The position numbers and the translations under genes are program-made. From assembly GCF_041146795.1 (NCBI RefSeq), contig NC_135185.1, positions 27,711,529 to 27,775,528 of the forward strand: a DNA stretch of 64,000 nt, in the 5' to 3' direction. This DNA is from Maylandia zebra. Its lineage: Eukaryota; Chordata; Actinopteri; Cichliformes; Cichlidae. The notes under the pieces were generated by a model. The model saw nothing but the letters and a program-made list of their open reading frames with translations. It was not told where the DNA came from and did not search any database. Position 1 is the first letter of the stretch; each line of letters starts with the position of its first letter. This document shows positions 1 through 34,567 of this stretch, one piece after another.

Positions 1-1424
1 TCTTCTATGAAAATTTTAACAATCGTATTGTCGACTGTTGGTTCATTTAATTCCATGTTTTGCAGAACTACTTCTGCCTCTTGCCACTGTTTACACAGGG
101 CTTTGAAAATCACCTTCTCAAAGTTTTTGAACTTCCTTAAGGGGATTTGATCAATTTCATCCCTGATTTTAGCCCAGATTTTTTCGCTAAGCCTCTTGTA
201 GATGGTTAAAACTCTTTCTGGACTTATGACTTTACCTGATTTTTTTATAACCCGCTTAACTAGTTCTTCCATACATGTTTCCACAAAAAATCGGTATTTT
301 TCTTTGTTTTGAGACAATTCATCCTTTGCTACCAAAGGGTGTTTTTTGAATTGATTTTGCATGCTGGCTTCATGTTGAGCCGAGGATTTCTTTGGGGTTA
401 CATCATTTTCCAAAGAGGTTCCTGCTTTATCTACAGCCTGCGTGGTGTCACGGTTTTTCTTGTCTATTGGAGTTCTGGGCTCGTCAGATGTATCAATGAT
501 ATTTGTGGCAACATTTTCTGCTGTGTTGTTCACGTTGACTGTTGTTTTCTGTTGTTCAGGAGCTGTCTGTGTCTCCTTTGAGGCCACTGTTGTTGTGATG
601 TTTTCTGTGATGTTGATCAAATCCCTTGTTTTCTGTAGAATCACAGCCTTAATGTGATCTGCCAGCGATGCATTATCCTCTGAGTTTTCAGGTGTTTCCA
701 TGGTATTTTGGATATTAGTGATAAGTGTGGCACCAGCGGAATTTTCTGCTGTGCTGTTCACGTTGACTGTTGCTTTCTGTAAAATAACAACTGGCACACA
801 GATTAGATTTCCCATGATGCGGTCACCTGTGTTAGAGGTCTGTGCAAGTTCAGGAGCTGTTTCTGTCTCCTCTAAGGCCACTGTTGTTGTGCTATTTTCT
901 GGGATGTTTAACAAATCCATTGCTTTCTGTAGAATCACAGCCTTAATTTGATCTGCCAGCGATGCATAATCCTCTGAGTTTTCAGTTGTTTCCGTGGTAT
1001 TTTGGATATTAGTGATAAATGTGACATCAGCGGAATTTTCTGCTGTGCTGTGCAAGTTGGCTGTTGTTTCCTGTGAAATATGAGCTGGCATTTCCGTGTT
1101 GCGGTCAACTGTGTTAGAGGTCTGTGCAAGTTCAGGAGCTGTCTGTGTCTGCTTTAAGGCCACTGTTGTTGTGCTAGTGACAGCAGTGTCCTGGCAAAAC
1201 CTCAGTTCTGCACCTGCTGACAGTGAGCATAGGGCAATGACATTATCTACAAAATTACATAGCCTTCCTATGGTGGCATTTTCGGCGTAATCAGACCGCA
1301 ACTGTTGCCACTGCTCATGTGTAACATTATTTAGCAATTCCTCTAGCAGTGGCCTAACATCATTTGCAGGAGTGGAATGACTCCTGACATTGTCTGGATT
1401 GCTCCTAGCTGTGTTGTTGTCCAT
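1..1424 (-). CDS. Uncharacterised 509-aa array protein, 5' part (cut by window edge)
   Basis: This is the first ~474 codons of the array ORF; the C-terminal ~35 residues lie outside the window. Start choice: the minus-strand ATG at 1424 has A at -3 and G at +4 (AAAATGG), and it sits about 87 bases downstream of a TATA box. The sequence matches the complete copies throughout the visible part, with the CGA form of the arginine codon near 291. Its state beyond the window is unknown, so it cannot be called intact. Confidence 0.75.
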   Translation of the reverse strand, partial: MDNNTARSNPDNVRSHSTPANDVRPLLEELLNNVTHEQWQQLRSDYAENATIGRLCNFVDNVIALCSLSAGAELRFCQDTAVTSTTTVALKQTQTAPELAQTSNTVDRNTEMPAHISQETTANLHSTAENSADVTFITNIQNTTETTENSEDYASLADQIKAVILQKAMDLLNIPENSTTTVALEETETAPELAQTSNTGDRIMGNLICVPVVILQKATVNVNSTAENSAGATLITNIQNTMETPENSEDNASLADHIKAVILQKTRDLINITENITTTVASKETQTAPEQQKTTVNVNNTAENVATNIIDTSDEPRTPIDKKNRDTTQAVDKAGTSLENDVTPKKSSAQHEASMQNQFKKHPLVAKDELSQNKEKYRFFVETCMEELVKRVIKKSGKVISPERVLTIYKRLSEKIWAKIRDEIDQIPLRKFKNFEKVIFKALCKQWQEAEVVLQNMELNEPTVDNTIVKIFIE

Positions 1425-1510
1425 TTTGCTTCAATATCTATTTGTTTGCTGTTAATGTCTTCTCTCTGTTTGTTAAAGCGAGCGTTAGAAAAAACAGAGT
1501 TGCAGAGGGC

Positions 1511-1600
1511 TATTTATAGGTTTTTGTCTGTATGACGTCTTTGAAGCCCCGCCCACTTCAAGTGTGACGTCTTTGAAGCCTTTGATCTAAGCCCCGCCCA
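1511..1600 (-). promoter_or_regulatory. TATA/GC-box/CRE-half-site promoter of array ORF, unit 0
   Basis: Read on the minus strand, TATAAATA (1511-1518) lies about 87 bases upstream of the ATG. Upstream of it are two TGACGTC/GACGTCA motifs (1533-1539, 1565-1571), and two GGGCGGGGC-type GC boxes sit at 1547-1553 and 1591-1599. The GACGTCTTTGAAG module occurs twice. This looks like a compact RNA polymerase II core promoter with ATF/CREB and Sp1-type sites. It is a motif-based call only. Confidence 0.7.
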
Positions 1601-1644
1601 CTTCGAGCAAAAAAAGAATGCGCTCGGAGAGTGTGGTTTGTTTG

Positions 1645-1695
1645 TCTCTCTCTCTCTCTCTCTCTCTCTCCCCCCCCCCCCCCCCCCCCCCCCCC
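1645..1695. repeat. (TC)n(C)n tract, unit 0
   Basis: About 26 bp of TC repeat followed by 25 C, placed upstream of the ORF promoter. A homopurine/homopyrimidine tract of this kind can form triplex or i-motif DNA (established for such sequences; not shown here). Confidence 0.95.
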
Positions 1696-1852
1696 AAGCT
1701 TCATCACAGCCTCCCATAATAATAACTTTAGTAATGGTAGCAGTTAAAATATTGTCTGGTTTCATTTGGAACAACGATAGTTGTTTCGTTTATCGTTGAT
1801 TGTTGATCTATTACAGTCGACCAGGTGACAACAATCACGTTGAAAAATCATT

Positions 1853-1956
1853 TATTTATAGTTGGCCGGAAACTAAAGCTGCTGTCACTTGGACTATTCC
1901 GTAGCACCCACCCGAGTAGTCGTCCTCGTCCCTGCACTGCACGTCGATCTCAGGTA
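1853..1956 (+). promoter_or_regulatory. Plus-strand TATA box followed by strong splice donor (possible divergent transcript)
   Basis: TATTTATA (1853-1860) is followed 93 bases later by CTCAG|GTAAGAA, a near-consensus 5' splice site (exon end 1953). It is oriented away from the minus-strand gene, so the two TATA boxes form a divergent pair about 340 bp apart with the TC/C tract between them. Equivalent TATA/donor positions are 8379/8480, 14912/15013, 21455/21556 and 27998/28099. In unit 5 the TATA (34539) is kept but the donor is lost at the array end. No long ORF follows, so any transcript may be non-coding. Confidence 0.35.
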
Positions 1957-2909
1957 AGAATGTATTTATTTAGTCATTGTTTGAATGCTGAATTTGGAAA
2001 AACAGTCAAGATTGCTTGATATTTATAGTCTATTAAAATGTATATTATAGTATATTTAAAATGTGGGGAAAATTTCTCAATAGAAATGTCTAAAATATCA
2101 TAATTTGGTTCCCAAGTATAAATAACATTTAAAGCTATCTTGGACAGAAGGAAAAGAGTATGTATTTCTTAGAAAACGCGAAATCTGCACAAACATACCA
2201 TTTTCATGTCATAATGTTCTTTCTGTTATAAAGCTATATTAGCAAAGGTGCTGTAAAGTTGTTAGCAGTGTGTCAGCTTGGTGACCTGCCACAGAGTACC
2301 TTTGTGACGTCATTCGCTATGCTCCAGATCGGATGGGTGGTGCAGGACGCCCGACGACTCTCATCTATATACAATTCCCAGCAGCAGACAACTCCAACAT
2401 TCTGTATTTAATATTTGAATATATATTTTTTAATTTTCTGTCTGTGTGCCAAGGTGAGCTATGCACCTGTTTATTGTTACCTGCTGTGTCTCATGTTAAG
2501 AAAACATGTATGGTCAAAATAAAAACACTAGCTTTTAGTGTACAGGATGGATGTGAATGTTAGTGAACAAAACAGGCCTGCTGTATATCAGATGATGTGT
2601 ATATTCTTAATGTTTTTATGCTTACAAAACTCTACTCAAGTTTCTTTTAAAGTTTTTGCTTGCATTTCCTACACAAATGTCAAAATAATAAAAAATCTTT
2701 GTGCACTGATACATGGTCTCACATTTTTATCTATTCAGCTGCTGTGTGATGCACACCAGTGGTCCTCACTGCGCAATGTTAAAAGAAAGGCTTCATTTTT
2801 ATCAGCTGGTTTTCACATAGGCCAAACATCTCTAAGGATATTTCTCCATTGTCTATAAATACATGTCAACAACATGTAGCAACAACTACTACTGATTCAT
2901 ACATGTCCA

Positions 2910-6431: not shown

Positions 6432-7961
6432 CTACAATGCATCAACCTTGTTTTGTCTCCTGGTGAAACAAAACAGTCGGCCTATAGATGAGAAAAACCG
6501 ACGTATGCAACTTGGCTTCTTCGAAAGTTTGGCTGCCTCTTCTATGAAAATTTTAACAATCGTATTGTCGACTGTTGGTTCATTTAATTCCATGTTTTGC
6601 AGAACTACTTCTGCCTCTTGCCACTGTTTACACAGGGCTTTGAAAATCACCTTCTCAAAGTTTTTGAACTTCCTTAAGGGGATTTGATCAATTTCATCCC
6701 TGATTTTAGCCCAGATTTTTTCGCTAAGCCTCTTGTAGATGGTTAAAACTCTTTCTGGACTTATGACTTTACCTGATTTTTTTATAACCCGCTTAACTAG
6801 TTCTTCCATACATGTTTCCACAAAAAATCGGTATTTTTCTTTGTTTTGAGACAATTCATCCTTTGCTACCAAAGGGTGTTTTTTGAATTGATTTTGCATG
6901 CTGGCTTCATGTTGAGCCGAGGATTTCTTTGGGGTTACATCATTTTCCAAAGAGGTTCCTGCTTTATCTACAGCCTGCGTGGTGTCACGGTTTTTCTTGT
7001 CTATTGGAGTTCTGGGCTCGTCAGATGTATCAATGATATTTGTGGCAACATTTTCTGCTGTGTTGTTCACGTTGACTGTTGTTTTCTGTTGTTCAGGAGC
7101 TGTCTGTGTCTCCTTTGAGGCCACTGTTGTTGTGATGTTTTCTGTGATGTTGATCAAATCCCTTGTTTTCTGTAGAATCACAGCCTTAATGTGATCTGCC
7201 AGCGATGCATTATCCTCTGAGTTTTCAGGTGTTTCCATGGTATTTTGGATATTAGTGATAAGTGTGGCACCAGCGGAATTTTCTGCTGTGCTGTTCACGT
7301 TGACTGTTGCTTTCTGTAAAATAACAACTGGCACACAGATTAGATTTCCCATGATGCGGTCACCTGTGTTAGAGGTCTGTGCAAGTTCAGGAGCTGTTTC
7401 TGTCTCCTCTAAGGCCACTGTTGTTGTGCTATTTTCTGGGATGTTTAACAAATCCATTGCTTTCTGTAGAATCACAGCCTTAATTTGATCTGCCAGCGAT
7501 GCATAATCCTCTGAGTTTTCAGTTGTTTCCGTGGTATTTTGGATATTAGTGATAAATGTGACATCAGCGGAATTTTCTGCTGTGCTGTGCAAGTTGGCTG
7601 TTGTTTCCTGTGAAATATGAGCTGGCATTTCCGTGTTGCGGTCAACTGTGTTAGAGGTCTGTGCAAGTTCAGGAGCTGTCTGTGTCTGCTTTAAGGCCAC
7701 TGTTGTTGTGCTAGTGACAGCAGTGTCCTGGCAAAACCTCAGTTCTGCACCTGCTGACAGTGAGCATAGGGCAATGACATTATCTACAAAATTACATAGC
7801 CTTCCTATGGTGGCATTTTCGGCGTAATCAGACCGCAACTGTTGCCACTGCTCATGTGTAACATTATTTAGCAATTCCTCTAGCAGTGGCCTAACATCAT
7901 TTGCAGGAGTGGAATGACTCCTGACATTGTCTGGATTGCTCCTAGCTGTGTTGTTGTCCAT
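6432..7961 (-). CDS. Uncharacterised 509-aa array protein, copy in unit 1
   Basis: Intact single-exon ORF of 509 codons; function not recognised. Residues 1-80 look helical (LLEELLNNVTHEQWQQL). Residues 85-178 and 179-276 are two degenerate repeats of 94 and 98 aa, each opening TTTVA and containing TAPELAQTSNT, STAEN, ITNIQNT and SLAD-IKAVILQK; a third, shortened repeat starts at 277. Residues 313-375 are polar and probably disordered. Residues 376-480 form a charged helical domain (KYRFFVETCMEELVKR to IFIEEAAKL), followed by a basic, aromatic, Cys-containing tail (CIRRFFSSIGRLFCFTRR, 485-502). No signal peptide or membrane segment is evident. A compact promoter lies upstream, and a minus-strand AATAAA (6241-6246) lies about 190 bases past the stop. 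Expression is inferred, not shown. Confidence 0.8.
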   Translation of the reverse strand: MDNNTARSNPDNVRSHSTPANDVRPLLEELLNNVTHEQWQQLRSDYAENATIGRLCNFVDNVIALCSLSAGAELRFCQDTAVTSTTTVALKQTQTAPELAQTSNTVDRNTEMPAHISQETTANLHSTAENSADVTFITNIQNTTETTENSEDYASLADQIKAVILQKAMDLLNIPENSTTTVALEETETAPELAQTSNTGDRIMGNLICVPVVILQKATVNVNSTAENSAGATLITNIQNTMETPENSEDNASLADHIKAVILQKTRDLINITENITTTVASKETQTAPEQQKTTVNVNNTAENVATNIIDTSDEPRTPIDKKNRDTTQAVDKAGTSLENDVTPKKSSAQHEASMQNQFKKHPLVAKDELSQNKEKYRFFVETCMEELVKRVIKKSGKVISPERVLTIYKRLSEKIWAKIRDEIDQIPLRKFKNFEKVIFKALCKQWQEAEVVLQNMELNEPTVDNTIVKIFIEEAAKLSKKPSCIRRFFSSIGRLFCFTRRQNKVDAL

Positions 7962-8221: not shown

Positions 8222-9435
8222 AAGCTTCATCACAGCCTCCCATAATAATAACTTTAGTAATGGTAGCAGTTAAAATATTGTCTGGTTTCATTTGGAACAA
8301 CGATAGTTGTTTCGTTTATCGTTGATTGTTGATCTATTACAGTCGACCAGGTGACAACAATCACGTTGAAAAATCATTTATTTATAGTTGGCCGGAAACT
8401 AAAGCTGCTGTCACTTGGACTATTCCGTAGCACCCACCCGAGTAGTCGTCCTCGTCCCTGCACTGCACGTCGATCTCAGGTAAGAATGTATTTATTTAGT
8501 CATTGTTTGAATGCTGAATTTGGAAAAACAGTCAAGATTGCTTGATATTTATAGTCTATTAAAATGTATATTATAGTATATTTAAAATGTGGGGAAAATT
8601 TCTCAATAGAAATGTCTAAAATATCATAATTTGGTTCCCAAGTATAAATAACATTTAAAGCTATCTTGGACAGAAGGAAAAGAGTATGTATTTCTTAGAA
8701 AACGCGAAATCTGCACAAACATACCATTTTCATGTCATAATGTTCTTTCTGTTATAAAGCTATATTAGCAAAGGTGCTGTAAAGTTGTTAGCAGTGTGTC
8801 AGCTTGGTGACCTGCCACAGAGTACCTTTGTGACGTCATTCGCTATGCTCCAGATCGGATGGGTGGTGCAGGACGCCCGACGACTCTCATCTATATACAA
8901 TTCCCAGCAGCAGACAACTCCAACATTCTGTATTTAATATTTGAATATATATTTTTTAATTTTCTGTCTGTGTGCCAAGGTGAGCTATGCACCTGTTTAT
9001 TGTTACCTGCTGTGTCTCATGTTAAGAAAACATGTATGGTCAAAATAAAAACACTAGCTTTTAGTGTACAGGATGGATGTGAATGTTAGTGAACAAAACA
9101 GGCCTGCTGTATATCAGATGATGTGTATATTCTTAATGTTTTTATGCTTACAAAACTCTACTCAAGTTTCTTTTAAAGTTTTTGCTTGCATTTCCTACAC
9201 AAATGTCAAAATAATAAAAAATCTTTGTGCACTGATACATGGTCTCACATTTTTATCTATTCAGCTGCTGTGTGATGCACACCAGTGGTCCTCACTGCGC
9301 AATGTTAAAAGAAAGGCTTCATTTTTATCAGCTGGTTTTCACATAGGCCAAACATCTCTAAGGATATTTCTCCATTGTCTATAAATACATGTCAACAACA
9401 TGTAGCAACAACTACTACTGATTCATACATGTCCA

Positions 9436-9835
9436 TCACTTTGGATGAGTGCATGTTTTTTTGCACACTGTCATCCTGTGCACTGTCCCAGCATGATTAG
9501 ACCTTAGCGATGAACCTTGTTGCCAAAAAGCAAAGCCAGTGGGAGCAACATCTTCCAGAGCTAAAGCTCCGTTCACCAGCACTACTGGTGAGCCTTGTCT
9601 ATAACAATGCCATGTTTACATCACATACCAAATGTAGTCATTTTTTTTTTAAATTAACAGAATGATATATAGGATGTGATACTGATTACATAGTACTGAT
9701 CCTCACCTGAGTACATTTTGTTTTATAATTTCCCTGAGGTCCAGAACATCTCCATCATAATGATCATATCTTGTTTGGGGATGCTGCCCTGCCACACAGT
9801 TTGTAGGCCTCAAAAACCTGTTGATCTCAGTACAC
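9436..9835 (-). CDS. Candidate pair of coding exons, unit 2
   Basis: Exon A 9707-9835 and exon B 9436-9598, with the same splice sites and phase as in unit 1. The intron is 2 bp longer because of the T-run. No coding change was noticed. Confidence 0.35.
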
Positions 9836-10393
9836 CTGCAGATTCAAGGAGACATACTTTTACAGGTGACAGTATGTACTAAAGTATATGTAATTTAAAC
9901 TTTTTTCATAACATTATGAAGTTGTGTGATATGCGAGTGAGAGATTATGACAAACATCCAGAAAAGTCTTGTGATCATGCAGTCATGTCTGAAACTTCTC
10001 CCACACCGAGTGCAAGACAGGGTGGAAAAACCCTTTAATTCATAGTGTTCTTGTTGCAGTGAAACGCTAAAAGATTTAAAACAAAAAATAAGGGCACATA
10101 AAGTGACACTGCTTGCTTTTTGCAAACTACTTTCACAAAAAGCCCATTATGGATTATGCTCAAGTACACTGTTGTGTAAAATTTACTTTAGTAAATTTAC
10201 TTGTTTCATGCTTGGTCATGCAAGTTCTGTAAGTGAGTGAAAATAATTCCACAATTTTTTTTAGACATTTTTAGACACTCTAAGCTTTTTGAAAAAGAAA
10301 ATGATCAAATTGTAACACAGAGTGTGGTCAGACTGCTTTTGTTACACACAAATACCTGTACACGTTTGTAAATCTTAGTTTACGCTAAGAGAT

Positions 10394-10878
10394 CAGAGGA
10401 GAAGGGTGGAGTGCCCACTCCAGGTCAGGGATGAGTTCCTCCTCCAAGTGGAAGAGTTTAAGTATCTCAGGGTCTTGTTCACGAGTGATGGGAGAAGGGA
10501 GCAGGAGATCGACAGACAGATTGGTGCTCTCAATTTACTGGTCAATCTACGTCCCTACCCTCACCTGTGGTCACGAGCTGTGGGTAGTGACTGAAAGAAC
10601 AAGACTGCAGATACAAATGGCTAATATGAGCTTCCTCAGAAGCGTGGATGGCCTCTCCCTTAGAGGGGAGGCCAAGTGGCTTCTTTCCACATGGAAAGAA
10701 GCCACTTGAGGTGGTTCGGGCATCTGAGAAGAACACCTCCTGGGGTGAGGTGATCCGGGCATGTCCCACTGAGAGGAGGCCCCCGTGCCTTGGTGTTCCC
10801 CCAAACAAGCTGAAGGAGGTGGGTGGGGAGAGGGAGGTCTGGGCTTCTTTGCTTGGGCTGCTGCCCCCGTGATCCGCG
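10394..10878 (+). mobile_element. RTE-like LINE 3' fragment, unit 2
   Basis: Same relic as in unit 1, with the hairpin at 10674-10707. It carries the AAGCGTGG variant near 10640, which changes an Arg codon to Ser. Confidence 0.75.
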
Positions 10879-12585
10879 ATCCAGTAGAGTTGAGTATGTG
10901 GGTTACGCCCATTAAAAACTTGCCAGATTTTCTAATACAATACCAAACAGCACATTCTGCTATTCACTCTTGCTTTGAGCTTTGATACCCAGGTGCTCCA
11001 GTCATGTTCCTGATTGATACAAGTTTGATTTACTGAATACTAGCTAAGCAATCTAAGCAATCTACAGAATCTACAGAATCAACAAATTTCTTCCAGTCAG
11101 CGAATGCTGCATATAATTTTATTTTTTGCTTGTTGCAACGTGCATAAAATTAAAAGGTTAAAACTAATGAAACTAGTTTTGAATTTTTTTTTGCAGTTGA
11201 TTCAATTTTATATCATGAAATATGCAGAAAAAATAGAATTGGGCTGAAAGGTCTAATGCTTCATAACGTATTCAGGTTGTGTATCATATTTTTTAAAAGT
11301 AACTAAGTAAGAAAGTAACAAATTACTTACAAAAATAAGCAATCAGTAAAGTAATGGGATTAATTTCTTGGAGAAGTAATCAGTAATTAGTAAATAATTA
11401 CTATTTTCAAGTAACTTGACCAACACAGGGTATTACCGTATGAAGTGGCAGATGTTAAAGAAACTGTTCGGCTACATGTCCAGTAGGTGGTGCAGACGAC
11501 TGTCAGGATCCACTAATTCACCACAGTCAGAGTCTTTTGGATTACCTCTGCATCAGCTGAAGGAGTTAGTTTATTTAGTTTTTTGGTTATGTCATAGAAT
11601 AAAAAGGCCCACATTTTGGAAGGATTTAAGCCCATAAATAAACAGCAGAAATATCCATGTATAGAAAACCTTTTTCTATTAGAAAAAATTCTAATAATGT
11701 ATAGATACATATCAATACTCAATAACTCATTGTTCCACTTACAATAGCTGTAAGTGCAGCTTACCATGACTTGAGTGTTATCTCACACATCAACCACGGT
11801 AAAGCGTGTTATAGACAAGCCAGCCCACTGTGACCATTTCATGCTTTGCCTCTTTCAAAGTGTGAAATATACATGCATGCAAAAATTGCAGTAAGCTGTG
11901 GTTACAGCAGAGGGAGACATTTTATTTCAAGCCAAAGTGAAAAGAACCACAGGAAAGCATTTAAAAATGAAATTATTAACACATTTACAATTAAATATAC
12001 ATCAGCTGCCTAGCACTGCTCTGCTCACTACTGTGATATGGAGTTGCACACAAGTGTTTCTGTTTGCAACACTTTGCAAGATGTTGAAAGAGATGGAAGG
12101 AAAGATCTTACTGTAAACTAGCTCCGGCCTTGAGTTGAATTATTTCTTCAAGAAGTCACTTGGATGAGTGACGAAATGTTTCTCCCACACATAGGGTTTT
12201 AGATAGCACCTCCTCTCCTGACTTAGCTTGTTTTTGTTTGTTATTTTGGCCTGTGTTCACCAGGGAGTTAAGTTTTCAGTGGAGACAAATAAACCACCGT
12301 TCACTTAATAAATTGTTTTTTCTTCCCAAACCGTCACTTCCTTTTTAACCCTTATGCTACGTTCCTGTACCCCTAGACTGGGGCGTAACACATCTGAAAT
12401 GAAAAGCCTGTAAACGTGTGTTCCAGCCTCCTGACTTTGCTGGCACTCGGTCTTCATACTCGACTCCAGATCTGGACTTGTGTTGAACTCGACTGAGGTG
12501 GTCTGATCAGACACAGCGCTGCTGTTTGCTGCAGCTGTCCAAAAATCACAGACAAAGTCAGGAATGTTTTTACCTCGTCTAGCTG

Positions 12586-12588
<3 letters not shown>

Positions 12589-22511: not shown

Positions 22512-22909
22512 TCACTTTGGATGAGTGCATGTTTTTTTGCACACTGTCATCCTGTGCACTGTTCCAGCATGATTAGACCTTAGCGATGAACCTTGTTGCC
22601 AAAAAGCAAAGCCAGTGGGAGCAACATCTTCCAGAGCTAAAGCTCCGTTCACCAGCACTACTGGTGAGCCTTGTCTATAACAATGCCATGTTTACATCAC
22701 ATACCAAATGTAGTCATTTTTTTTAAATTAACAGAATGATATATAGGATGTGATACTGATTACATAGTACTGATCCTCACCTGAGTACATTTTGTTTTAT
22801 AATTTCCCTGAGGTCCAGAACATCTCCATCATAATGATCATATCTTGTTTGGGGATGCTGCCCTGCCACACAGTTTGTAGGCCTCAAAAACCTGTTGATC
22901 TCAGTACAC
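22512..22909 (-). CDS. Candidate pair of coding exons, unit 4
   Basis: Exon A 22781-22909 and exon B 22512-22674. The change at 22561 is synonymous (Gly). Splice signals are retained. Confidence 0.35.
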
Positions 22910-23467: not shown

Positions 23468-23952
23468 CAGAGGAGAAGGGTGGAGTGCCCACTCCAGGTC
23501 AGGGATGAGTTCCTCCTCCAAGTGGAAGAGTTTAAGTATCTCAGGGTCTTGTTCACGAGTGATGGGAGAAGGGAGCAGGAGATCGACAGACAGATTGGTG
23601 CTCTCAATTTACTGGTCAATCTACGTCCCTACCCTCACCTGTGGTCACGAGCTGTGGGTAGTGACTGAAAGAACAAGACTGCAGATACAAATGGCTAATA
23701 TGAGCTTCCTCAGACGCGTGGATGGCCTCTCCCTTAGAGGGGAGGCCAAGTGGCTTCTTTCCACATGGAAAGAAGCCACTTGAGGTGGTTCGGGCATCTG
23801 AGAAGAACACCTCCTGGGGTGAGGTGATCCGGGCATGTCCCACTGAGAGGAGGCCCCCGTGCCTTGGTGTTCCCCCAAACAAGCTGAAGGAGGTGGGTGG
23901 GGAGAGGGAGGTCTGGGCTTCTTTGCTTGGGCTGCTGCCCCCGTGATCCGCG
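23468..23952 (+). mobile_element. RTE-like LINE 3' fragment, unit 4
   Basis: Same relic, hairpin at 23748-23781, with the ACGCGTGG form. Confidence 0.75.
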
Positions 23953-25660
23953 ATCCAGTAGAGTTGAGTATGTGGGTTACGCCCATTAAAAACTTGCCAG
24001 ATTTTCTAATACAATACCAAACAGCACATTCTGCTATTCACTCTTGCTTTGAGCTTTGATACCCAGGTGCTCCAGTCATGTTCCTGATTGATACAAGTTT
24101 GATTTACTGAATACTAGCTAAGCAATCTAAGCAATCTACAGAATCTACAGAATCAACAAATTTCTTCCAGTCAGCGAATGCTGCATATAATTTTATTTTT
24201 TGCTTGTTGCAACGTGCATAAAATTAAAAGGTTAAAACTAATGAAACTAGTTTTGAAATTTTTTTTTTTATTTGATTCAATTTTATATCATGAAATATGC
24301 AGAAAAAATAGAATTGGGCTGAAAGGTCTAATGCTTCATAACGTATTCAGGTTGTGTATCATATTTTTTAAAAGTAACTAAGTAAGAAAGTAACAAATTA
24401 CTTACAAAAATAAGCAATCAGTAAAGTAATGGGATTAATTTCTTGGAGAAGTAATCAGTAATTAGTAAATAATTACTATTTTCAAGTAACTTGACCAACA
24501 CAGGGTATTACCGTATGAAGTGGCAGATGTTAAAGAAACTGTTCGGCTACATGTCCAGTAGGTGGTGCAGACGACTGTCAGGATCCACTAATTCACCACA
24601 GTCAGAGTCTTTTGGATTACCTCTGCATCAGCTGAAGGAGTTAGTTTATTTAGTTTTTTGGTTATGTCATAGAATAAAAAGGCCCACATTTTGGAAGGAT
24701 TTAAGCCCATAAATAAACAGCAGAAATATCCATGTATAGAAAACCTTTTTCTATTAGAAAAAATTCTAATAATGTATAGATACATATCAATACTCAATAA
24801 CTCATTGTTCCACTTACAATAGCTGTAAGTGCAGCTTACCATGACTTGAGTGTTATCTCACACATCAACCACGGTAAAGCGTGTTATAGACAAGCCAGCC
24901 CACTGTGACCATTTCATGCTTTGCCTCTTTCAAAGTGTGAAATATACATGCATGCAAAAATTGCAGTAAGCTGTGGTTACAGCAGAGGGAGACATTTTAT
25001 TTCAAGCCAAAGTGAAAAGAACCACAGGAAAGCATTTAAAAATGAAATTATTAACACATTTACAATTAAATATACATCAGCTGCCTAGCACTGCTCTGCT
25101 CACTACTGTGATATGGAGTTGCACACAAGTGTTTCTGTTTGCAACACTTTGCAAGATGTTGAAAGAGATGGAAGGAAAGATCTTACTGTGAACTAGCGCC
25201 GGCCTTGAGTTGAATTATTTCTTCAAGAAGTCACTTGGATGAGTGACGAAATGTTTCTCCCACACATAGGGTTTTAGATAGCACCTCCTCTCCTGACTTA
25301 GCTTGTTTTTGTTTGTTATTTTGGCCTGTGTTCACCAGGGAGTTAAGTTTTCAGTGGAGACAAATAAACCACCGTTCACTTAATAAATTGTTTTTTCTTC
25401 CCAAACCGTCACTTCCTTTTTAACCCTTATGCTACGTTCCTGTACCCCTAGACTGGGGCGTAACACATCTGAAATGAAAAGCCTGTAAACGTGTGTTCCA
25501 GCCTCCTGACTTTGCTGGCACTCGGTCTTCATACTCGACTCCAGATCTGGACTTGTGTTGAACTCGACTGAGGTGGTCTGATCAGACACAGCGCTGCTGT
25601 TTGCTGCAGCTGTCCAAAAATCACAGACAAAGTCAGGAATGTTTTTACCTCGTCTAGCTG

Positions 25661-25663
<3 letters not shown>

Positions 25664-25717
<54 letters not shown>
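25664..25717. repeat. (TG)n microsatellite, unit 4
   Basis: About 27 repeats. Confidence 0.95.
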
Positions 25718-25718
<1 letters not shown>

Positions 25719-26032
25719 AGGTCACATGACAGCACAGCATTTTCTACCCACAGTTTGAACTGAGCAAGAAATAACAAATGTATTTATTCAACTTACAGAC
25801 AATAAAAAAACAAACAGAAATCAGTGTAAAATTTAATAACTTTTATTGATGTTAACTTTTTTAAAAGTTATTAAAAAGAAAACCCCAACAGAAAAACCCC
25901 TCTGAGCAAGCACTTGGCGACAGTGGGGAAGAAAAACTCCCTTTTAAGAGGGAGAAACTTCCGGCAGAACCAGGCTCAGTGAGGGGACAGCCATCTGCCG
26001 CGACCGTTCCAAGGGGTTATCACAATTTTTTT

Positions 26033-27562
26033 CTACAATGCATCAACCTTGTTTTGTCTCCTGGTGAAACAAAACAGTCGGCCTATAGATGAGAAAAACC
26101 GACGTATGCAACTTGGCTTCTTCGAAAGTTTGGCTGCCTCTTCTATGAAAATTTTAACAATCGTATTGTCGACTGTTGGTTCATTTAATTCCATGTTTTG
26201 CAGAACTACTTCTGCCTCTTGCCACTGTTTACACAGGGCTTTGAAAATCACCTTCTCAAAGTTTTTGAACTTCCTTAAGGGGATTTGATCAATTTCATCC
26301 CTGATTTTAGCCCAGATTTTTTCGCTAAGCCTCTTGTAGATGGTTAAAACTCTTTCTGGACTTATGACTTTACCTGATTTTTTTATAACCCGCTTAACTA
26401 GTTCTTCCATACATGTTTCCACAAAAAATCTGTATTTTTCTTTGTTTTGAGACAATTCATCCTTTGCTACCAAAGGGTGTTTTTTGAATTGATTTTGCAT
26501 GCTGGCTTCATGTTGAGCCGAGGATTTCTTTGGGGTTACATCATTTTCCAAAGAGGTTCCTGCTTTATCTACAGCCTGCGTGGTGTCACGGTTTTTCTTG
26601 TCTATTGGAGTTCTGGGCTCGTCAGATGTATCAATGATATTTGTGGCAACATTTTCTGCTGTGTTGTTCACGTTGACTGTTGTTTTCTGTTGTTCAGGAG
26701 CTGTCTGTGTCTCCTTTGAGGCCACTGTTGTTGTGATGTTTTCTGTGATGTTGATCAAATCCCTTGTTTTCTGTAGAATCACAGCCTTAATGTGATCTGC
26801 CAGCGATGCATTATCCTCTGAGTTTTCAGGTGTTTCCATGGTATTTTGGATATTAGTGATAAGTGTGGCACCAGCGGAATTTTCTGCTGTGCTGTTCACG
26901 TTGACTGTTGCTTTCTGTAAAATAACAACTGGCACACAGATTAGATTTCCCATGATGCGGTCACCTGTGTTAGAGGTCTGTGCAAGTTCAGGAGCTGTTT
27001 CTGTCTCCTCTAAGGCCACTGTTGTTGTGCTATTTTCTGGGATGTTTAACAAATCCATTGCTTTCTGTAGAATCACAGCCTTAATTTGATCTGCCAGCGA
27101 TGCATAATCCTCTGAGTTTTCAGTTGTTTCCGTGGTATTTTGGATATTAGTGATAAATGTGACATCAGCGGAATTTTCTGCTGTGCTGTGCAAGTTGGCT
27201 GTTGTTTCCTGTGAAATATGAGCTGGCATTTCCGTGTTGCGGTCAACTGTGTTAGAGGTCTGTGCAAGTTCAGGAGCTGTCTGTGTCTGCTTTAAGGCCA
27301 CTGTTGTTGTGCTAGTGACAGCAGTGTCCTGGCAAAACCTCAGTTCTGCACCTGCTGACAGTGAGCATAGGGCAATGACATTATCTACAAAATTACATAG
27401 CCTTCCTATGGTGGCATTTTCGGCGTAATCAGACCGCAACTGTTGCCACTGCTCATGTGTAACATTATTTAGCAATTCCTCTAGCAGTGGCCTAACATCA
27501 TTTGCAGGAGTGGAATGACTCCTGACATTGTCTGGATTGCTCCTAGCTGTGTTGTTGTCCAT
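26033..27562 (-). CDS. Uncharacterised 509-aa array protein, copy in unit 4
   Basis: Intact 509-codon ORF, protein identical to the other copies. It shares the AGA arginine codon with unit 2 although it lies two units away, which suggests exchange or conversion between alternate units. Candidate poly(A) signal at 25842-25847 (minus). Confidence 0.8.
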   Translation of the reverse strand: MDNNTARSNPDNVRSHSTPANDVRPLLEELLNNVTHEQWQQLRSDYAENATIGRLCNFVDNVIALCSLSAGAELRFCQDTAVTSTTTVALKQTQTAPELAQTSNTVDRNTEMPAHISQETTANLHSTAENSADVTFITNIQNTTETTENSEDYASLADQIKAVILQKAMDLLNIPENSTTTVALEETETAPELAQTSNTGDRIMGNLICVPVVILQKATVNVNSTAENSAGATLITNIQNTMETPENSEDNASLADHIKAVILQKTRDLINITENITTTVASKETQTAPEQQKTTVNVNNTAENVATNIIDTSDEPRTPIDKKNRDTTQAVDKAGTSLENDVTPKKSSAQHEASMQNQFKKHPLVAKDELSQNKEKYRFFVETCMEELVKRVIKKSGKVISPERVLTIYKRLSEKIWAKIRDEIDQIPLRKFKNFEKVIFKALCKQWQEAEVVLQNMELNEPTVDNTIVKIFIEEAAKLSKKPSCIRRFFSSIGRLFCFTRRQNKVDAL

Positions 27563-27648
27563 TTTGCTTCAATATCTATTTGTTTGCTGTTAATGTCTTC
27601 TCTCTGTTTGTTAAAGCGAGCGTTAGAAAAAACAGAGTTGCAGAGGGC

Positions 27649-27738
27649 TATTTATAGGTTTTTGTCTGTATGACGTCTTTGAAGCCCCGCCCACTTCAAG
27701 TGTGACGTCTTTGAAGCCTTTGATCTAAGCCCCGCCCA
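27649..27738 (-). promoter_or_regulatory. Array ORF promoter, unit 4
   Basis: TATAAATA at 27649-27656 with the same upstream motif set, serving the ATG at 27562. Confidence 0.7.
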
Positions 27739-27780
27739 CTTCGAGCAAAAAAAGAATGCGCTCGGAGAGTGTGGTTTGTT

Positions 27781-27782
<2 letters not shown>

Positions 27783-27816
<34 letters not shown>

Positions 27817-27840
27817 CCCCCCCCCCCCCCCCCCCCCCCC
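27783..27840. repeat. (TC)n(C)n tract, unit 4
   Basis: Longest copy, 58 bp. Confidence 0.95.
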
Positions 27841-29054
27841 AAGCTTCATCACAGCCTCCCATAATAATAACTTTAGTAATGGTAGCAGTTAAAATATTGT
27901 CTGGTTTCATTTGGAACAACGATAGTTGTTTCGTTTATCGTTGATTGTTGATCTATTACAGTCGACCAGGTGACAACAATCACGTTGAAAAATCATTTAT
28001 TTATAGTTGGCCGGAAACTAAAGCTGCTGTCACTTGGACTATTCCGTAGCACCCACCCGAGTAGTCGTCCTCGTCCCTGCACTGCACGTCGATCTCAGGT
28101 AAGAATGTATTTATTTAGTCATTGTTTGAATGCTGAATTTGGAAAAACAGTCAAGATTGCTTGATATTTATAGTCTATTAAAATGTATATTATAGTATAT
28201 TTAAAATGTGGGGAAAATTTCTCAATAGAAATGTCTAAAATATCATAATTTGGTTCCCAAGTATAAATAACATTTAAAGCTATCTTGGACAGAAGGAAAA
28301 GAGTATGTATTTCTTAGAAAACGCGAAATCTGCACAAACATACCATTTTCATGTCATAATGTTCTTTCTGTTATAAAGCTATATTAGCAAAGGTGCTGTA
28401 AAGTTGTTAGCAGTGTGTCAGCTTGGTGACCTGCCACAGAGTACCTTTGTGACGTCATTCGCTATGCTCCAGATCGGATGGGTGGTGCAGGACGCCCGAC
28501 GACTCTCATCTATATACAATTCCCAGCAGCAGACAACTCCAACATTCTGTATTTAATATTTGAATATATATTTTTTAATTTTCTGTCTGTGTGCCAAGGT
28601 GAGCTATGCACCTGTTTATTGTTACCTGCTGTGTCTCATGTTAAGAAAACATGTATGGTCAAAATAAAAACACTAGCTTTTAGTGTACAGGATGGATGTG
28701 AATGTTAGTGAACAAAACAGGCCTGCTGTATATCAGATGATGTGTATATTCTTAATGTTTTTATGCTTACAAAGCTCTACTCAAGTTTCTTTTAAAGTTT
28801 TTGCTTGCATTTCCTACACAAATGTCAAAATAATAAAAAATCTTTGTGCACTGATACATGGTCTCACATTTTTATCTATTCAGCTGCTGTGTGATGCACA
28901 CCAGTGGTCCTCACTGCGCAATGTTAAAAGAAAGGCTTCATTTTTATCAGCTGGTTTTCACATAGGCCAAACATCTCTAAGGATATTTCTCCATTGTCTA
29001 TAAATACATGTCAACAACATGTAGCAACAACTACTACTGATTCATACATGTCCA

Positions 29055-29452
29055 TCACTTTGGATGAGTGCATGTTTTTTTGCACACTGTCATCCTGTGC
29101 ACTGTTCCAGCATGATTAGACCTTAGCGATGAACCTTGTTGCCAAAAAGCAAAGCCAGTGGGAGCAACATCTTCCAGAGCTAAAGCTCCGTTCACCAGCA
29201 CTACTGGTGAGCCTTGTCTATAACAATGCCATGTTTACATCACATACCAAATGTAGTCATTTTTTTTAAATTAACAGAATGATATATAGGATGTGATACT
29301 GATTACATAGTACTGATCCTCACCTGAGTACATTTTGTTTTATAATTTCCCTGAGGTCCAGAACATCTCCATCATAATGATCATATCTTGTTTGGGGATG
29401 CTGCCCTGCCACACAGTTTGTAGGCCTCAAAAACCTGTTGATCTCAGTACAC
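29055..29452 (-). CDS. Candidate pair of coding exons, unit 5
   Basis: Exon A 29324-29452 and exon B 29055-29217. It shares the synonymous Gly codon change with unit 4. Splice signals are retained. Confidence 0.35.
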
Positions 29453-30010
29453 CTGCAGATTCAAGGAGACATACTTTTACAGGTGACAGTATGTACTAAA
29501 GTATATGTAATTTAAACTTTTTTCATAACATTATGAAGTTGTGTGATATGCGAGTGAGAGATTATGACAAACATCCAGAAAAGTCTTGTGATCATGCAGT
29601 CATGTCTGAAACTTCTCCCACACCGAGTGCAAGACAGGGTGGAAAAACCCTTTAATTCATAGTGTTCTTGTTGCAGTGAAACGCTAAAAGATTTAAAACA
29701 AAAAATAAGGGCACATAAAGTGACACTGCTTGCTTTTTGCAAACTACTTTCACAAAAAGCCCATTATGGATTATGCTCAAGTACACTGTTGTGTAAAATT
29801 TACTTTAGTAAATTTACTTGTTTCATGCTTGGTCATGCAAGTTCTGTAAGTGAGTGAAAATAATTCCACAATTTTTTTTAGACATTTTTAGACACTCTAA
29901 GCTTTTTGAAAAAGAAAATGATCAAATTGTAACACAGAGTGTGGTCAGACTGCTTTTGTTACACACAAATACCTGTACACGTTTGTAAATCTTAGTTTAC
30001 GCTAAGAGAT

Positions 30011-30495
30011 CAGAGGAGAAGGGTGGAGTGCCCACTCCAGGTCAGGGATGAGTTCCTCCTCCAAGTGGAAGAGTTTAAGTATCTCAGGGTCTTGTTCACG
30101 AGTGATGGGAGAAGGGAGCAGGAGATCGACAGACAGATTGGTGCTCTCAATTTACTGGTCAATCTACGTCCCTACCCTCACCTGTGGTCACGAGCTGTGG
30201 GTAGTGACTGAAAGAACAAGACTGCAGATACAAATGGCTAATATGAGCTTCCTCAGAAGCGTGGATGGCCTCTCCCTTAGAGGGGAGGCCAAGTGGCTTC
30301 TTTCCACATGGAAAGAAGCCACTTGAGGTGGTTCGGGCATCTGAGAAGAACACCTCCTGGGGTGAGGTGATCCGGGCATGTCCCACTGAGAGGAGGCCCC
30401 CGTGCCTTGGTGTTCCCCCAAACAAGCTGAAGGAGGTGGGTGGGGAGAGGGAGGTCTGGGCTTCTTTGCTTGGGCTGCTGCCCCCGTGATCCGCG
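30011..30495 (+). mobile_element. RTE-like LINE 3' fragment, unit 5
   Basis: Same relic, hairpin at 30291-30324, with the AAGCGTGG form shared with unit 2. Confidence 0.75.
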
Positions 30496-32202
30496 ATCCA
30501 GTAGAGTTGAGTATGTGGGTTACGCCCATTAAAAACTTGCCAGATTTTCTAATACAATACCAAACAGCACATTCTGCTATTCACTCTTGCTTTGAGCTTT
30601 GATACCCAGGTGCTCCAGTCATGTTCCTGATTGATACAAGTTTGATTTACTGAATACTAGCTAAGCAATCTAAGCAATCTACAGAATCTACAGAATCAAC
30701 AAATTTCTTCCAGTCAGCGAATGCTGCATATAATTTTATTTTTTGCTTGTTGCAACGTGCATAAAATTAAAAGGTTAAAACTAATGAAACTAGTTTTGAA
30801 TTTTTTTTTTCAGTTGATTCAATTTTATATCATGAAATATGCAGAAAAAATAGAATTGGGCTGAAAGGTCTAATGCTTCATAACGTATTCAGGTTGTGTA
30901 TCATATTTTTTAAAAGTAACTAAGTAAGAAAGTAACAAATTACTTACAAAAATAAGCAATCAGTAAAGTAATGGGATTAATTTCTTGGAGAAGTAATCAG
31001 TAATTAGTAAATAATTACTATTTTCAAGTAACTTGACCAACACAGGGTATTACCGTATGAAGTGGCAGATGTTAAAGAAACTGTTCGGCTACATGTCCAG
31101 TAGGTGGTGCAGACGACTGTCAGGATCCACTAATTCACCACAGTCAGAGTCTTTTGGATTACCTCTGCATCAGCTGAAGGAGTTAGTTTATTTAGTTTTT
31201 TGGTTATGTCATAGAATAAAAAGGCGCACATTTTGGAAGGATTTAAGCCCATAAATAAACAGCAGAAATATCCATGTATAGAAAACCTTTTTCTATTAGA
31301 AAAAATTCTAATAATGTATAGATACATATCAATACTCAATAACTCATTGTTCCACTTACAATAGCTGTAAGTGCAGCTTACCATGACTTGAGTGTTATCT
31401 CACACATCAACCACGGTAAAGCGTGTTATAGACAAGCCAGCCCACTGTGACCATTTCATGCTTTGCCTCTTTCAAAGTGTGAAATATACATGCATGCAAA
31501 AATTGCAGTAAGCTGTGGTTACAGCAGAGGGAGACATTTTATTTCAAGCCAAAGTGAAAAGAACCACAGGAAAGCATTTAAAAATGAAATTATTAACACA
31601 TTTACAATTAAATATACATCAGCTGCCTAGCACTGCTCTGCTCACTACTGTGATATGGAGTTGCACACAAGTGTTTCTGTTTGCAACACTTTGCAAGATG
31701 TTGAAAGAGATGGAAGGAAAGATCTTACTGTGAACTAGCTCCGGCCTTGAGTTGAATTATTTCTTCAAGAAGTCACTTGGATGAGTGACGAAATGTTTCT
31801 CCCACACATAGGGTTTTAGATAGCACCTCCTCTCCTGACTTAGCTTGTTTTTGTTTGTTATTTTGGCCTGTGTTCACCAGGGAGTTAAGTTTTCAGTGGA
31901 GACAAATAAACCACCGTTCACTTAATAAATTGTTTTTTCTTCCCAAACCGTCACTTCCTTTTTAACCCTTATGCTACGTTCCTGTACCCCTAGACTGGGG
32001 CGTAACACATCTGAAATGAAAAGCCTGTAAACGTGTGTTCCAGCCTCCTGACTTTGCTGGCACTCGGTCTTCATACTCGACTCCAGATCTGGACTTGTGT
32101 TGAACTCGACTGAGGTGGTCTGATCAGACACAGCGCTGCTGTTTGCTGCAGCTGTCCAAAAATCACAGACAAAGTCAGGAATGTTTTTACCTCATCTAGC
32201 TG

Positions 32203-32205
<3 letters not shown>

Positions 32206-32269
<64 letters not shown>
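32206..32269. repeat. (TG)n microsatellite, unit 5
   Basis: About 32 repeats, the longest copy. Confidence 0.95.
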
Positions 32270-32270
<1 letters not shown>

Positions 32271-32584
32271 AGGTCACATGACAGCACAGCATTTTCTACC
32301 CACAGTTTGAACTGAGCAAGAAATAACAAATGTATTTATTCAACTTACAGACAATAAAAAAACAAACAGAAATCAGTGTAAAATTTAATAACTTTTATTG
32401 ATGTTAACTTTTTAAAAAGTTATTAAAAAGAAAACCCCAACAGAAAAACCCCTCTGAGCAAGCACTTGGCGACAGTGGGGAAGAAAAACTCCCTTTTAAG
32501 AGGGAGAAACTTCCGGCAGAACCAGGCTCAGTGAGGGGACAGCCATCTGCCGCGACCGTTCCAAGGGGTTATCACAATTTTTTT

Positions 32585-34114
32585 CTACAATGCATCAACC
32601 TTGTTTTGTCTCCTGGTGAAACAAAACAGTCGGCCTATAGATGAGAAAAACCGACGTATGCAACTTGGCTTCTTCGAAAGTTTGGCTGCCTCTTCTATGA
32701 AAATTTTAACAATCGTATTGTCGACTGTTGGTTCATTTAATTCCATGTTTTGCAGAACTACTTCTGCCTCTTGCCACTGTTTACACAGGGCTTTGAAAAT
32801 CACCTTCTCAAAGTTTTTGAACTTCCTTAAGGGGATTTGATCAATTTCATCCCTGATTTTAGCCCAGATTTTTTCGCTAAGCCTCTTGTAGATGGTTAAA
32901 ACTCTTTCTGGACTTATGACTTTACCTGATTTTTTTATAACCCGCTTAACTAGTTCTTCCATACATGTTTCCACAAAAAATCGGTATTTTTCTTTGTTTT
33001 GAGACAATTCATCCTTTGCTACCAAAGGGTGTTTTTTGAATTGATTTTGCATGCTGGCTTCATGTTGAGCCGAGGATTTCTTTGGGGTTACATCATTTTC
33101 CAAAGAGGTTCCTGCTTTATCTACAGCCTGCGTGGTGTCACGGTTTTTCTTGTCTATTGGAGTTCTGGGCTCGTCAGATGTATCAATGATATTTGTGGCA
33201 ACATTTTCTGCTGTGTTGTTGACGTTGACTGTTGTTTTCTGTTGTTCAGGAGCTGTCTGTGTCTCCTTTGAGGCCACTGTTGTTGTGATGTTTTCTGTGA
33301 TGTTGATCAAATCCCTTGTTTTCTGTAGAATCACAGCCTTAATGTGATCTGCCAGCGATGCATTATCCTCTGAGTTTTCAGGTGTTTCCATGGTATTTTG
33401 GATATTAGTGATAAGTGTGGCACCAGCGGAATTTTCTGCTGTGCTGTTCACGTTGACTGTTGCTTTCTGTAAAATAACAACTGGCACACAGATTAGATTT
33501 CCCATGATGCGGTCACCTGTGTTAGAGGTCTGTGCAAGTTCAGGAGCTGTTTCTGTCTCCTCTAAGGCCACTGTTGTTGTGCTATTTTCTGGGATGTTTA
33601 ACAAATCCATTGCTTTCTGTAGAATCACAGCCTTAATTTGATCTGCCAGCGATGCATAATCCTCTGAGTTTTCAGTTGTTTCCGTGGTATTTTGGATATT
33701 AGTGATAAATGTGACATCAGCGGAATTTTCTGCTGTGCTGTGCAAGTTGGCTGTTGTTTCCTGTGAAATATGAGCTGGCATTTCCGTGTTGCGGTCAACT
33801 GTGTTAGAGGTCTGTGCAAGTTCAGGAGCTGTCTGTGTCTGCTTTAAGGCCACTGTTGTTGTGCTAGTGACAGCAGTGTCCTGGCAAAACCTCAGTTCTG
33901 CACCTGCTGACAGTGAGCATAGGGCAATGACATTATCTACAAAATTACATAGCCTTCCTATGGTGGCATTTTCGGCGTAATCAGACCGCAACTGTTGCCA
34001 CTGCTCATGTGTAACATTATTTAGCAATTCCTCTAGCAGTGGCCTAACATCATTTGCAGGAGTGGAATGACTCCTGACATTGTCTGGATTGCTCCTAGCT
34101 GTGTTGTTGTCCAT
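32585..34114 (-). CDS. Uncharacterised 509-aa array protein, copy in unit 5
   Basis: Intact 509-codon ORF, protein identical to the other copies. It has a synonymous Val codon change (GTG to GTC) at 33222. It is the last gene of the array; its promoter (34201-34290) is complete, and the array stops 277 bp beyond the promoter. Candidate poly(A) signal at 32394-32399 (minus). Confidence 0.8.
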   Translation of the reverse strand: MDNNTARSNPDNVRSHSTPANDVRPLLEELLNNVTHEQWQQLRSDYAENATIGRLCNFVDNVIALCSLSAGAELRFCQDTAVTSTTTVALKQTQTAPELAQTSNTVDRNTEMPAHISQETTANLHSTAENSADVTFITNIQNTTETTENSEDYASLADQIKAVILQKAMDLLNIPENSTTTVALEETETAPELAQTSNTGDRIMGNLICVPVVILQKATVNVNSTAENSAGATLITNIQNTMETPENSEDNASLADHIKAVILQKTRDLINITENITTTVASKETQTAPEQQKTTVNVNNTAENVATNIIDTSDEPRTPIDKKNRDTTQAVDKAGTSLENDVTPKKSSAQHEASMQNQFKKHPLVAKDELSQNKEKYRFFVETCMEELVKRVIKKSGKVISPERVLTIYKRLSEKIWAKIRDEIDQIPLRKFKNFEKVIFKALCKQWQEAEVVLQNMELNEPTVDNTIVKIFIEEAAKLSKKPSCIRRFFSSIGRLFCFTRRQNKVDAL

Positions 34115-34200
34115 TTTGCTTCAATATCTATTTGTTTGCTGTTAATGTCTTCTCTCTGTTTGTTAAAGCGAGCGTTAGAAAAAACAGAGTTGCAGAGGGC

Positions 34201-34290
34201 TATTTATAGGTTTTTGTCTGTATGACGTCTTTGAAGCCCCGCCCACTTCAAGTGTGACGTCTTTGAAGCCTTTGATCTAAGCCCCGCCCA
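34201..34290 (-). promoter_or_regulatory. Array ORF promoter, unit 5
   Basis: TATAAATA at 34201-34208 with the same upstream motif set, serving the ATG at 34114. It is complete although the array ends 277 bp further on. Confidence 0.7.
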
Positions 34291-34334
34291 CTTCGAGCAA
34301 AAAAAGAATGCGCTCGGAGAGTGTGGTTTGTTTG

Positions 34335-34352
34335 TCTCTCTCTCTCTCTCTC

Positions 34353-34381
<29 letters not shown>
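34335..34381. repeat. (TC)n(C)n tract, unit 5
   Basis: 47-bp copy in the last unit. Confidence 0.95.
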
Positions 34382-34383
<2 letters not shown>

Positions 34384-34567
34384 GCTTCATCACAGCCTCC
34401 CATAATAATAACTTTAGTAATGGTAGCAGTTAAAATATTGTCTGGTTTCATTTGGAACAACGATAGTTGTCTCGTTTATCGTTGATTGTTGATCTATTAC
34501 AGTCGACCAGGTGACAACAATCACGTTGAAAAATCATTTATTTATAGTTGGCTGGAAACTAAAGCTG

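What the first reader, a model, noticed from the sequence alone, without database searches (positions are those of the whole stretch)
1..34567. Gene-bearing macrosatellite: six tandem 6.5 kb units, each with the same intact 509-aa ORF and its own promoter
The unit carries a complete single-exon gene with a good start context, TATA, GC-box and CRE-type promoter and a poly(A) signal. All five complete copies encode the same protein. I recognise no family. Gene-carrying macrosatellites of this kind (D4Z4/DUX4 is the known human example) are few and tend to be germline or dosage linked. It could be a fish-specific amplified gene, possibly on a sex or B chromosome (speculation).
Basis: partly seen in the sequence, partly recalled or inferred. 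Interest (0 to 1): 0.78.

Follow-up and report, generated by a model that had tools for sequence, protein, structure and literature searches.

The report
Tandem array of uncharacterised fish gene
A fish chromosome carries eight nearly identical back-to-back copies of an intact, single-exon gene that matches no family in the databases searched, and this array is one branch of a fast-evolving family of about 120 open copies spread, partly in similar arrays, over many chromosomes.

Summary
Window 1-34567 is a head-to-tail array of 6.53 kb units differing at 8-14 sites per pair. Each complete unit carries the same 509-aa ORF on the minus strand, with strong start context, TATA, two GC boxes, two CRE-like sites and two poly(A) signals. 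The array continues left of the window: eight intact genes in 51.7 kb.

No Pfam, NCBIfam or PDB relative was found for the members tested. Two promoter patterns occur 15 and 24 times in 962 Mb; 38 of these 39 hits lie at family genes or remnants. This argues for a host gene family duplicated at DNA level. dN/dS is about 1 between recent paralogues; within the C19 array four of five coding differences are silent.

Most likely: a functional, dosage-amplified gene family. Germline or early-embryo use is inferred; expression is untested.

The parts
1..1881 (.). partial leftmost unit within the window (the unit continues left of the window); carries the first 474 codons of a sixth ORF copy (ATG at 1424, minus strand)
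   Evidence: continuation on C19
1882..8407 (.). complete unit 1 (6526 bp)
8408..14940 (.). complete unit 2 (6533 bp)
14941..21483 (.). complete unit 3 (6543 bp)
21484..28026 (.). complete unit 4 (6543 bp)
28027..34567 (.). complete unit 5 (6541 bp); right edge of the array at 34567
6432..7961 (-). 509-aa ORF, copy 1
12950..14479 (-). 509-aa ORF, copy 2
19495..21024 (-). 509-aa ORF, copy 3
26033..27562 (-). 509-aa ORF, copy 4
32585..34114 (-). 509-aa ORF, copy 5: N-terminal module, Thr-rich internal repeats, C-terminal domain (helical by my reading of the sequence; no structure predicted)
32588..32989 (-). part of copy 5 that encodes the family-defining C-terminal domain and basic tail (residues 376-509)
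34200..34289 (-). core promoter of copy 5: GC boxes (34282-34289, 34237-34244), GACGTCA (34255-34261, 34223-34229), TCAAAG sites, CTATAAATAG (34200-34209); same offsets in the other four complete copies
   Evidence: one GC-box/TATA pattern hit at each of the 8 array genes
32335..32399 (-). two AATAAA poly(A) signals of copy 5 (+185 and +244 after the stop)
32421..32570 (-). 3'UTR segment about 83-89% alike between subfamilies, resembling the 3' tail of a teleost L2-type LINE (identity recalled, not tested)
30015..31043 (.). spacer with repeat fragments: about 30015-30486 matches sequence left of the array and looks like a reverse-transcriptase-derived fragment (recalled, not tested), and 30698-31043 is a dispersed repeat

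Best explanation
The array is a gene-bearing macrosatellite of a functional host gene. Each 6.5-kb unit is a complete transcription unit: a TATA/GC-box/CRE promoter, a single coding exon and its own poly(A) signals. The array is one homogenised branch of a large gene family in which different paralogues have repeatedly formed their own tandem arrays. Copies increase by DNA-level duplication (tandem unequal exchange and multi-kb segments moved between chromosomes) and stay alike within an array by gene conversion or unequal crossing-over. The product has a variable N part, one to three related domains of about 100 residues that look helical, and a basic C-terminal tail. It probably works as a dosage-sensitive binding or scaffold protein under fast protein evolution, most plausibly in germ cells or early embryos. 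Shown: array, intact ORFs, family, arrays elsewhere, family-specific promoter patterns, mostly silent change within the C19 array. Inferred: homogenisation route, protein role, helical fold, tissue, dosage as the reason for amplification.
For: Array and identical ORFs. Eight intact copies; 5 variable coding sites in 1530 bp, 4 silent and 1 amino-acid change (K167Q); by my own arithmetic 4 or more silent of 5 has p about 0.01-0.02 if neutral. Family: 97, 97 and 105 match rows (several per gene, overlapping between searches) in three own-genome protein searches; 122 open frames of at least 400 codons with no stop in the match, by hand count. Same-strand runs of three or more: C16:16.26-16.35M (17 genes), C7:11.77-11.82M (13), C21:10.36-10.42M (12 in groups of 4, 4, 2, 2), C19 (8), C17:15.99-16.05M (6), C16:16.77M (4), C21:7.51M (3), C6:14.03M (3), C9:7.73M (3; C9 has 8 in groups of 2, 2, 1, 3). 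In five paralogue pairs all coding indels keep the frame; under neutral substitution alone the frame stays open with probability 0.09, 0.11, 0.09, 0.12 and 0 of 2000. Four deep pairs have dN/dS 0.32-0.54. Promoter motifs in 12 upstream regions: GC box 10, TATA 11, CRE half-site 11, X-box 7, against 0.33, 2.5, 1.8 and 0.01 expected. Genome-wide, promoter patterns hit family genes or remnants in 14 of 15 and 24 of 24 cases (which contains the 11); two genes are hit by both patterns; reversed controls 0. Domain duplicated inside the protein, hhalign probability 97.7. Segments of 3-5 kb shared at 98-99% between chromosomes.
Against: No expression, copy-number or fitness data. Recent paralogues have dN/dS about 1 (W-C22 1.15, L069-L070 1.04, subfamily B summed pN/pS 1.06; L048-L050 0.83, L044-L045 0.39), which fits relaxed constraint as well as fast adaptive change. 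The C22 copy lacks the family ATG and promoter, so some relatives are probably dead. Copies with stops exist (C21:7.46-7.50M, C21:9.54M). The window subfamily lacks the X-box found in others and L046 has only TATA. In mouse, RFX2 and CREM targets hardly overlap (PMC4498915, passages read), so the germ-cell reading of the promoter is weak. Within-array identity is clean for C19 and C9, but subfamily B copies mix between C15, C16, C17, C48 and C26.
Confidence: 0.6

Rival explanations
1. The ORF belongs to a mobile element, for example a non-autonomous retroposon that borrows an L2-type LINE tail; the arrays are by-products of insertion and tandem duplication.
For: Family on many chromosomes; a segment resembling a LINE 3' tail lies downstream of the stop in 10 of 13 loci printed; multi-kb copies shared between chromosomes.
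Against: No transposase, reverse transcriptase or nuclease domain in the members scanned (1, 13 and 15 sequences). Conserved promoter motifs lie upstream of the TATA box, which retroposition would not carry. In L048 the tail segment is followed by further gene 3'UTR, and L050 lacks it, so it looks like an internal insertion. No target-site duplication seen by eye at the edges of the C19 array. C22 copy homology runs past the poly(A) signals into a CA repeat.
Confidence: 0.12
2. The family works in immunity: fast-evolving, copy-number-variable intracellular proteins amplified like other fish immune families.
For: dN/dS near 1 among recent paralogues, with the highest replacement rate in an N-terminal stretch of subfamily B; one C16 stretch between two inverted copies holds immunoglobulin V-set and C2-set exons.
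Against: No significant immune domain in the members scanned. Only one such neighbourhood was read. Near-identity within arrays fits dosage better than diversity.
Confidence: 0.15
3. The C19 array is a passive macrosatellite: a once-functional gene caught in recent tandem duplication, now neutral, with ORFs intact only because the copies are young.
For: Unit differences are only 8-14 per 6.5 kb, so stops have had little time to arise; recent paralogues show dN/dS about 1.
Against: 4 of 5 coding differences are silent; similar arrays of open copies exist in divergent subfamilies, with promoter and frame kept in those tested.
Confidence: 0.13

Closest known systems
RS447 megasatellite / USP17 (DUB/USP17L) of human 4p16 and 8p23 (from own knowledge)
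   Same: Multi-kb tandem unit, intronless ORF of about 500 codons in each unit, high identity between units, copies on more than one chromosome.
   Different: No ubiquitin hydrolase domain here; here many divergent paralogues formed their own arrays.
D4Z4 / DUX4 macrosatellite (from own knowledge; papers seen as search listing only)
   Same: One promoter-driven single-exon ORF per repeat in a tandem array.
   Different: No homeobox; every unit has its own poly(A) signals, whereas DUX4 needs a distal one; unit 6.5 kb instead of 3.3 kb.
Ampliconic germline genes of rodents (Slx/Sly, Speer) and early-embryo clusters (Obox, LEUTX) (from own knowledge)
   Same: Rapid amplification, near-identical copies, fast protein change.
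   Different: No detected relation between the proteins; no evidence here of sex linkage or stage of expression.

Membership tests
gene-bearing macrosatellite | head-to-tail units of more than 1 kb with high identity | tested here: met
gene-bearing macrosatellite | intact ORF with promoter motifs in each unit | tested here: met
gene-bearing macrosatellite | copy-number variation between individuals | not testable with these tools
   one assembly only
D4Z4/DUX4 | double homeobox protein | tested here: not met
   no Pfam match
RS447/USP17 | ubiquitin carboxyl-terminal hydrolase domain | tested here: not met
   no Pfam or PDB match
retroposon using a LINE tail | copies start at or downstream of the transcription start and end in the tail | tested here: not met
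   promoter motifs kept upstream of TATA in the subfamilies tested; tail internal to the 3'UTR in L048 and absent in L050
retroposon using a LINE tail | target-site duplications | tested here: inconclusive
   none seen by eye at the C19 array edges; most dispersed copies were not fetched to both ends
DNA transposon or LINE protein | transposase, reverse transcriptase or nuclease domain | tested here: not met

The most novel reading that the evidence does not exclude
The family is an undescribed genetic-conflict system of this fish lineage: a promoter-protein cassette whose paralogues repeatedly escalate dosage by forming macrosatellites on different chromosomes, with tens of near-identical copies active in germ cells or the first embryonic divisions, perhaps as drivers and suppressors of one another.
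Probability: 0.18. Interest if true: 0.85.

Novelty: new member of a known kind. Interest (0 to 1): 0.55.

Why it matters
About 120 open copies of a protein family without a named domain, with a shared promoter grammar in most subfamilies tested, would be a large unstudied part of a vertebrate gene repertoire. Because divergent paralogues formed separate arrays under one promoter type, the genome offers replicated natural tests of why some genes are amplified into macrosatellites (dosage, conflict or drift), a question hard to test with single examples such as D4Z4. Short-read assemblies would tend to collapse such arrays, which may be why my searches listed no report of them.

Tried and rejected
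Known domain: Pfam, NCBIfam, PHROGs and PDB searches with single proteins and alignments gave only weak, mutually inconsistent hits. I rejected them, including iSTAND at E 0.0099, below its cut-off. These scans used 13 family members, or 15 domain stretches from them, of about 122. Viral origin: one scan of viral contigs found no relative. RNA genes: none in Rfam at gathering score or ARAGORN over the window. TRF found no array because its longest period is 500. LINE-tail-borne retroposon: considered because of the 3'UTR segment, rejected on promoter and tail position. A DNA search to prove that this segment is a common repeat did not complete; in the window its 23-base core occurs only in the five complete units. 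Structure prediction was not possible, so fold comparison was not done. Literature: eight searches listed no paper that I recognised as describing this family; two more served other questions. Most subscription papers are not held. Rows dropped from the count of 122 open frames: all matches with stops inside or a frame under 400 codons, the C22 copy (no ATG at the family position), and the match inside a 2691-codon frame at C11:6432598, which I could not fetch. That count was made by hand.
Full report
Observation. The window lies at C19:27711529-27775528 of a 962-Mb genome in 63 contigs. Its first 34567 bases are a tandem array: self-comparison gives collinear matches at about 6.53 kb offsets with 99.5-99.6% identity. 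Five complete units (6526-6543 bp) and a partial one lie in the window. Units differ at 8-14 sites per pair and in a TG and a CT/C tract. The array runs from C19:27694366 to 27746095, about 7.9 units, with eight intact ORFs. The gene is on the minus strand. All five complete ORFs in the window give one protein of 509 aa; over the eight copies there are five variable coding sites, four silent and one K/Q change at residue 167. The longest ORF in 300 first-order random versions of the unit was 188 aa. Promoter and poly(A) features sit at identical offsets in all five complete copies.

Protein. No Pfam, NCBIfam or PDB relative reaches significance, alone or as a profile, for the 13 members or 15 domain stretches tested. 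The C-terminal 134 residues form a domain, helical by my reading (no predictor was available), that is related to the block before it in other members (hhalign probability 97.7, E 1.7e-12). In the window protein the middle part is instead Thr-rich, with internal repeats visible at DNA level. Eight of the ten C-termini aligned run on into a longer tail, basic in most. A C-terminal PDZ-ligand-like ending is possible but is only my reading.

Family. Three protein searches of the own genome, with different members, returned 97, 97 and 105 match rows; rows overlap between searches and several may belong to one gene, but the tool scores only the best candidates, so further members may be missing. 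By hand count 122 places have an open frame of at least 400 codons with no stop in the match. Same-strand runs of three or more: C16:16.26-16.35M (17 genes, spacing mostly 4.1-5.5 kb with two gaps of 12.2 kb), C7:11.77-11.82M (13, 3.79 kb), C21:10.36-10.42M (12 in groups of 4, 4, 2 and 2, 3.83 kb within groups), C19 (8, 6.5 kb), C17:15.99-16.05M (6, 11.0 kb with one wider gap), C16:16.77M (4, 4.78 kb), C21:7.51M (3, 4.25 kb), C6:14.03M (3, 4.75 kb) and C9:7.73M (3, 4.02 kb; C9 has five more nearby, two pairs at 3.36 kb and one single). Subfamily B (C15, C16, C17, C48, C26) lies partly in inverted pairs and shares 3.6-5.5 kb at 98-99% between C15, C16 and C48. In a tree of the last 250 residues of 46 proteins the 8 C19 copies are identical and join the C22 copy (100/100), and the 8 C9 copies form a clade (100/99); several other forks are weak, and subfamily B copies from different chromosomes intermingle. 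That is homogenisation within some arrays and recent exchange between chromosomes for subfamily B.

Promoter. In 12 upstream regions of 400 bp, GC box occurs in 10, TATA in 11, CRE half-site in 11, TCAAAG in 7 and X-box in 7, against 0.33, 2.5, 1.8, 1.7 and 0.01 expected by first-order random sequences. The 12 include related copies (four of subfamily B, two of the window subfamily, two of the C21/C1 one), so they are not independent, and L046 has only TATA. A stronger test is genome-wide. GC box followed by TATAAATAG within 10-40 bases occurs 15 times in 962 Mb: once at each of the 8 C19 genes, 6 times at C1/C21 family genes, and once elsewhere (C15:25286219). X-box followed by GC box occurs 24 times, 23 upstream of open family genes and one (C21:5474172) upstream of a shortened copy; reversed control 0 (11 of them already). 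Two C21 genes are hit by both patterns. The window subfamily has no X-box.

Mode of spread. Conserved promoter motifs upstream of TATA, and homology running past the poly(A) signals (C22 copy), speak for DNA-level duplication. A 150-bp 3'UTR segment is about 83-89% alike between subfamilies although coding DNA is often beyond detection; it is present in 10 of 13 loci printed. I recall it as the 3' tail of a teleost L2-type LINE; the check did not complete. In L048 it ends in repeated TTGAA and is followed by more 3'UTR, while L050 lacks it, so it looks like an internal insertion and not the terminus of a mobile unit. No target-site duplication was seen by eye at the C19 array edges.

Selection. 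Recent paralogues have dN/dS near 1 (1.15, 1.04, 0.83, and pN/pS 1.06 summed over subfamily B) and one pair 0.39; four deep pairs have 0.32-0.54 (L046-L047, W-L024, W-L040, L024-L040), L069-L048 has 0.69, and two pairs were saturated. Frames nevertheless stay open: in five pairs every indel is a multiple of three, and neutral substitution would leave the frame open with probability 0.09, 0.11, 0.09, 0.12 and 0 of 2000. Two of these pairs share a member and all were chosen from open copies, so the figures overstate the case. I read this as a coding family under fast change; relaxed constraint in some copies cannot be excluded.

Species and context. Contig sizes C15 43.1, C16 37.4, C17 40.7, C19 32.0, C21 38.5 and C22 50.2 Mb resemble tilapia linkage groups 15, 16, 17, 19, 22 and 23 (39.7, 36.0, 38.8, 31.0, 39.2, 45.7 Mb; PMC6447674, passages read) if the contigs are numbered in that order, so an African cichlid is likely (inference). 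Nothing shows a sex or B chromosome.

Function. The best-supported reading is a functional gene family amplified for dosage, with each array unit self-contained. The promoter type (TATA, GC boxes, CRE, X-box in other subfamilies) and fast evolution suggest germ cells or early embryo, but mouse data show RFX2 and CREM targets to be largely separate (PMC4498915, passages read), so this stays a guess. An immune role is a rival: one C16 stretch beside a subfamily B gene holds Ig V-set and C2-set exons.

Verdict. Real, not an artefact by sequence criteria, and more than one array: the finding is one member of an expanded family that I could not match to any named one. As a kind of locus it is a new member of the gene-bearing macrosatellites, closest in anatomy to RS447/USP17 and D4Z4/DUX4 (both from own knowledge), with no detected relation to them in protein.

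Noticed in passing
window 55878-59519 and 60359-64000: Inverted repeat with 3.64-kb arms 99.97% identical around an 839-bp spacer, both arms carrying the same reverse-transcriptase frame (one tested); it reaches the window edge. A recent palindrome or a fold-back assembly error.
   Followed up: no
window 38661-50950: Reverse-transcriptase ORFs of LINE type beside the array: 790 aa on the minus strand, 991 aa and 930 aa on the plus strand; their long open frames suggest young insertions (inference).
   Followed up: partly
G000:C11:6432598-6433059: A match to the family lies inside a 2691-codon open frame; possible ancestor, fusion or element. Could not be fetched.
   Followed up: partly
L071 4645-5443 (C16:17690145-17690943): Immunoglobulin V-set and C2-set exons between two inverted subfamily B copies on C16.
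   Followed up: partly
G000:C21:7462830-7498622 and C21:9540761-9555310: Family fragments and copies with stops, the first group next to intact copies: birth and death of copies.
   Followed up: no
subfamily B, codons 31-70 of the alignment: Amino-acid differences are densest in an N-terminal stretch (pN 0.072, pN/pS 1.4, the highest pN of 16 windows), perhaps a binding surface.
   Followed up: partly
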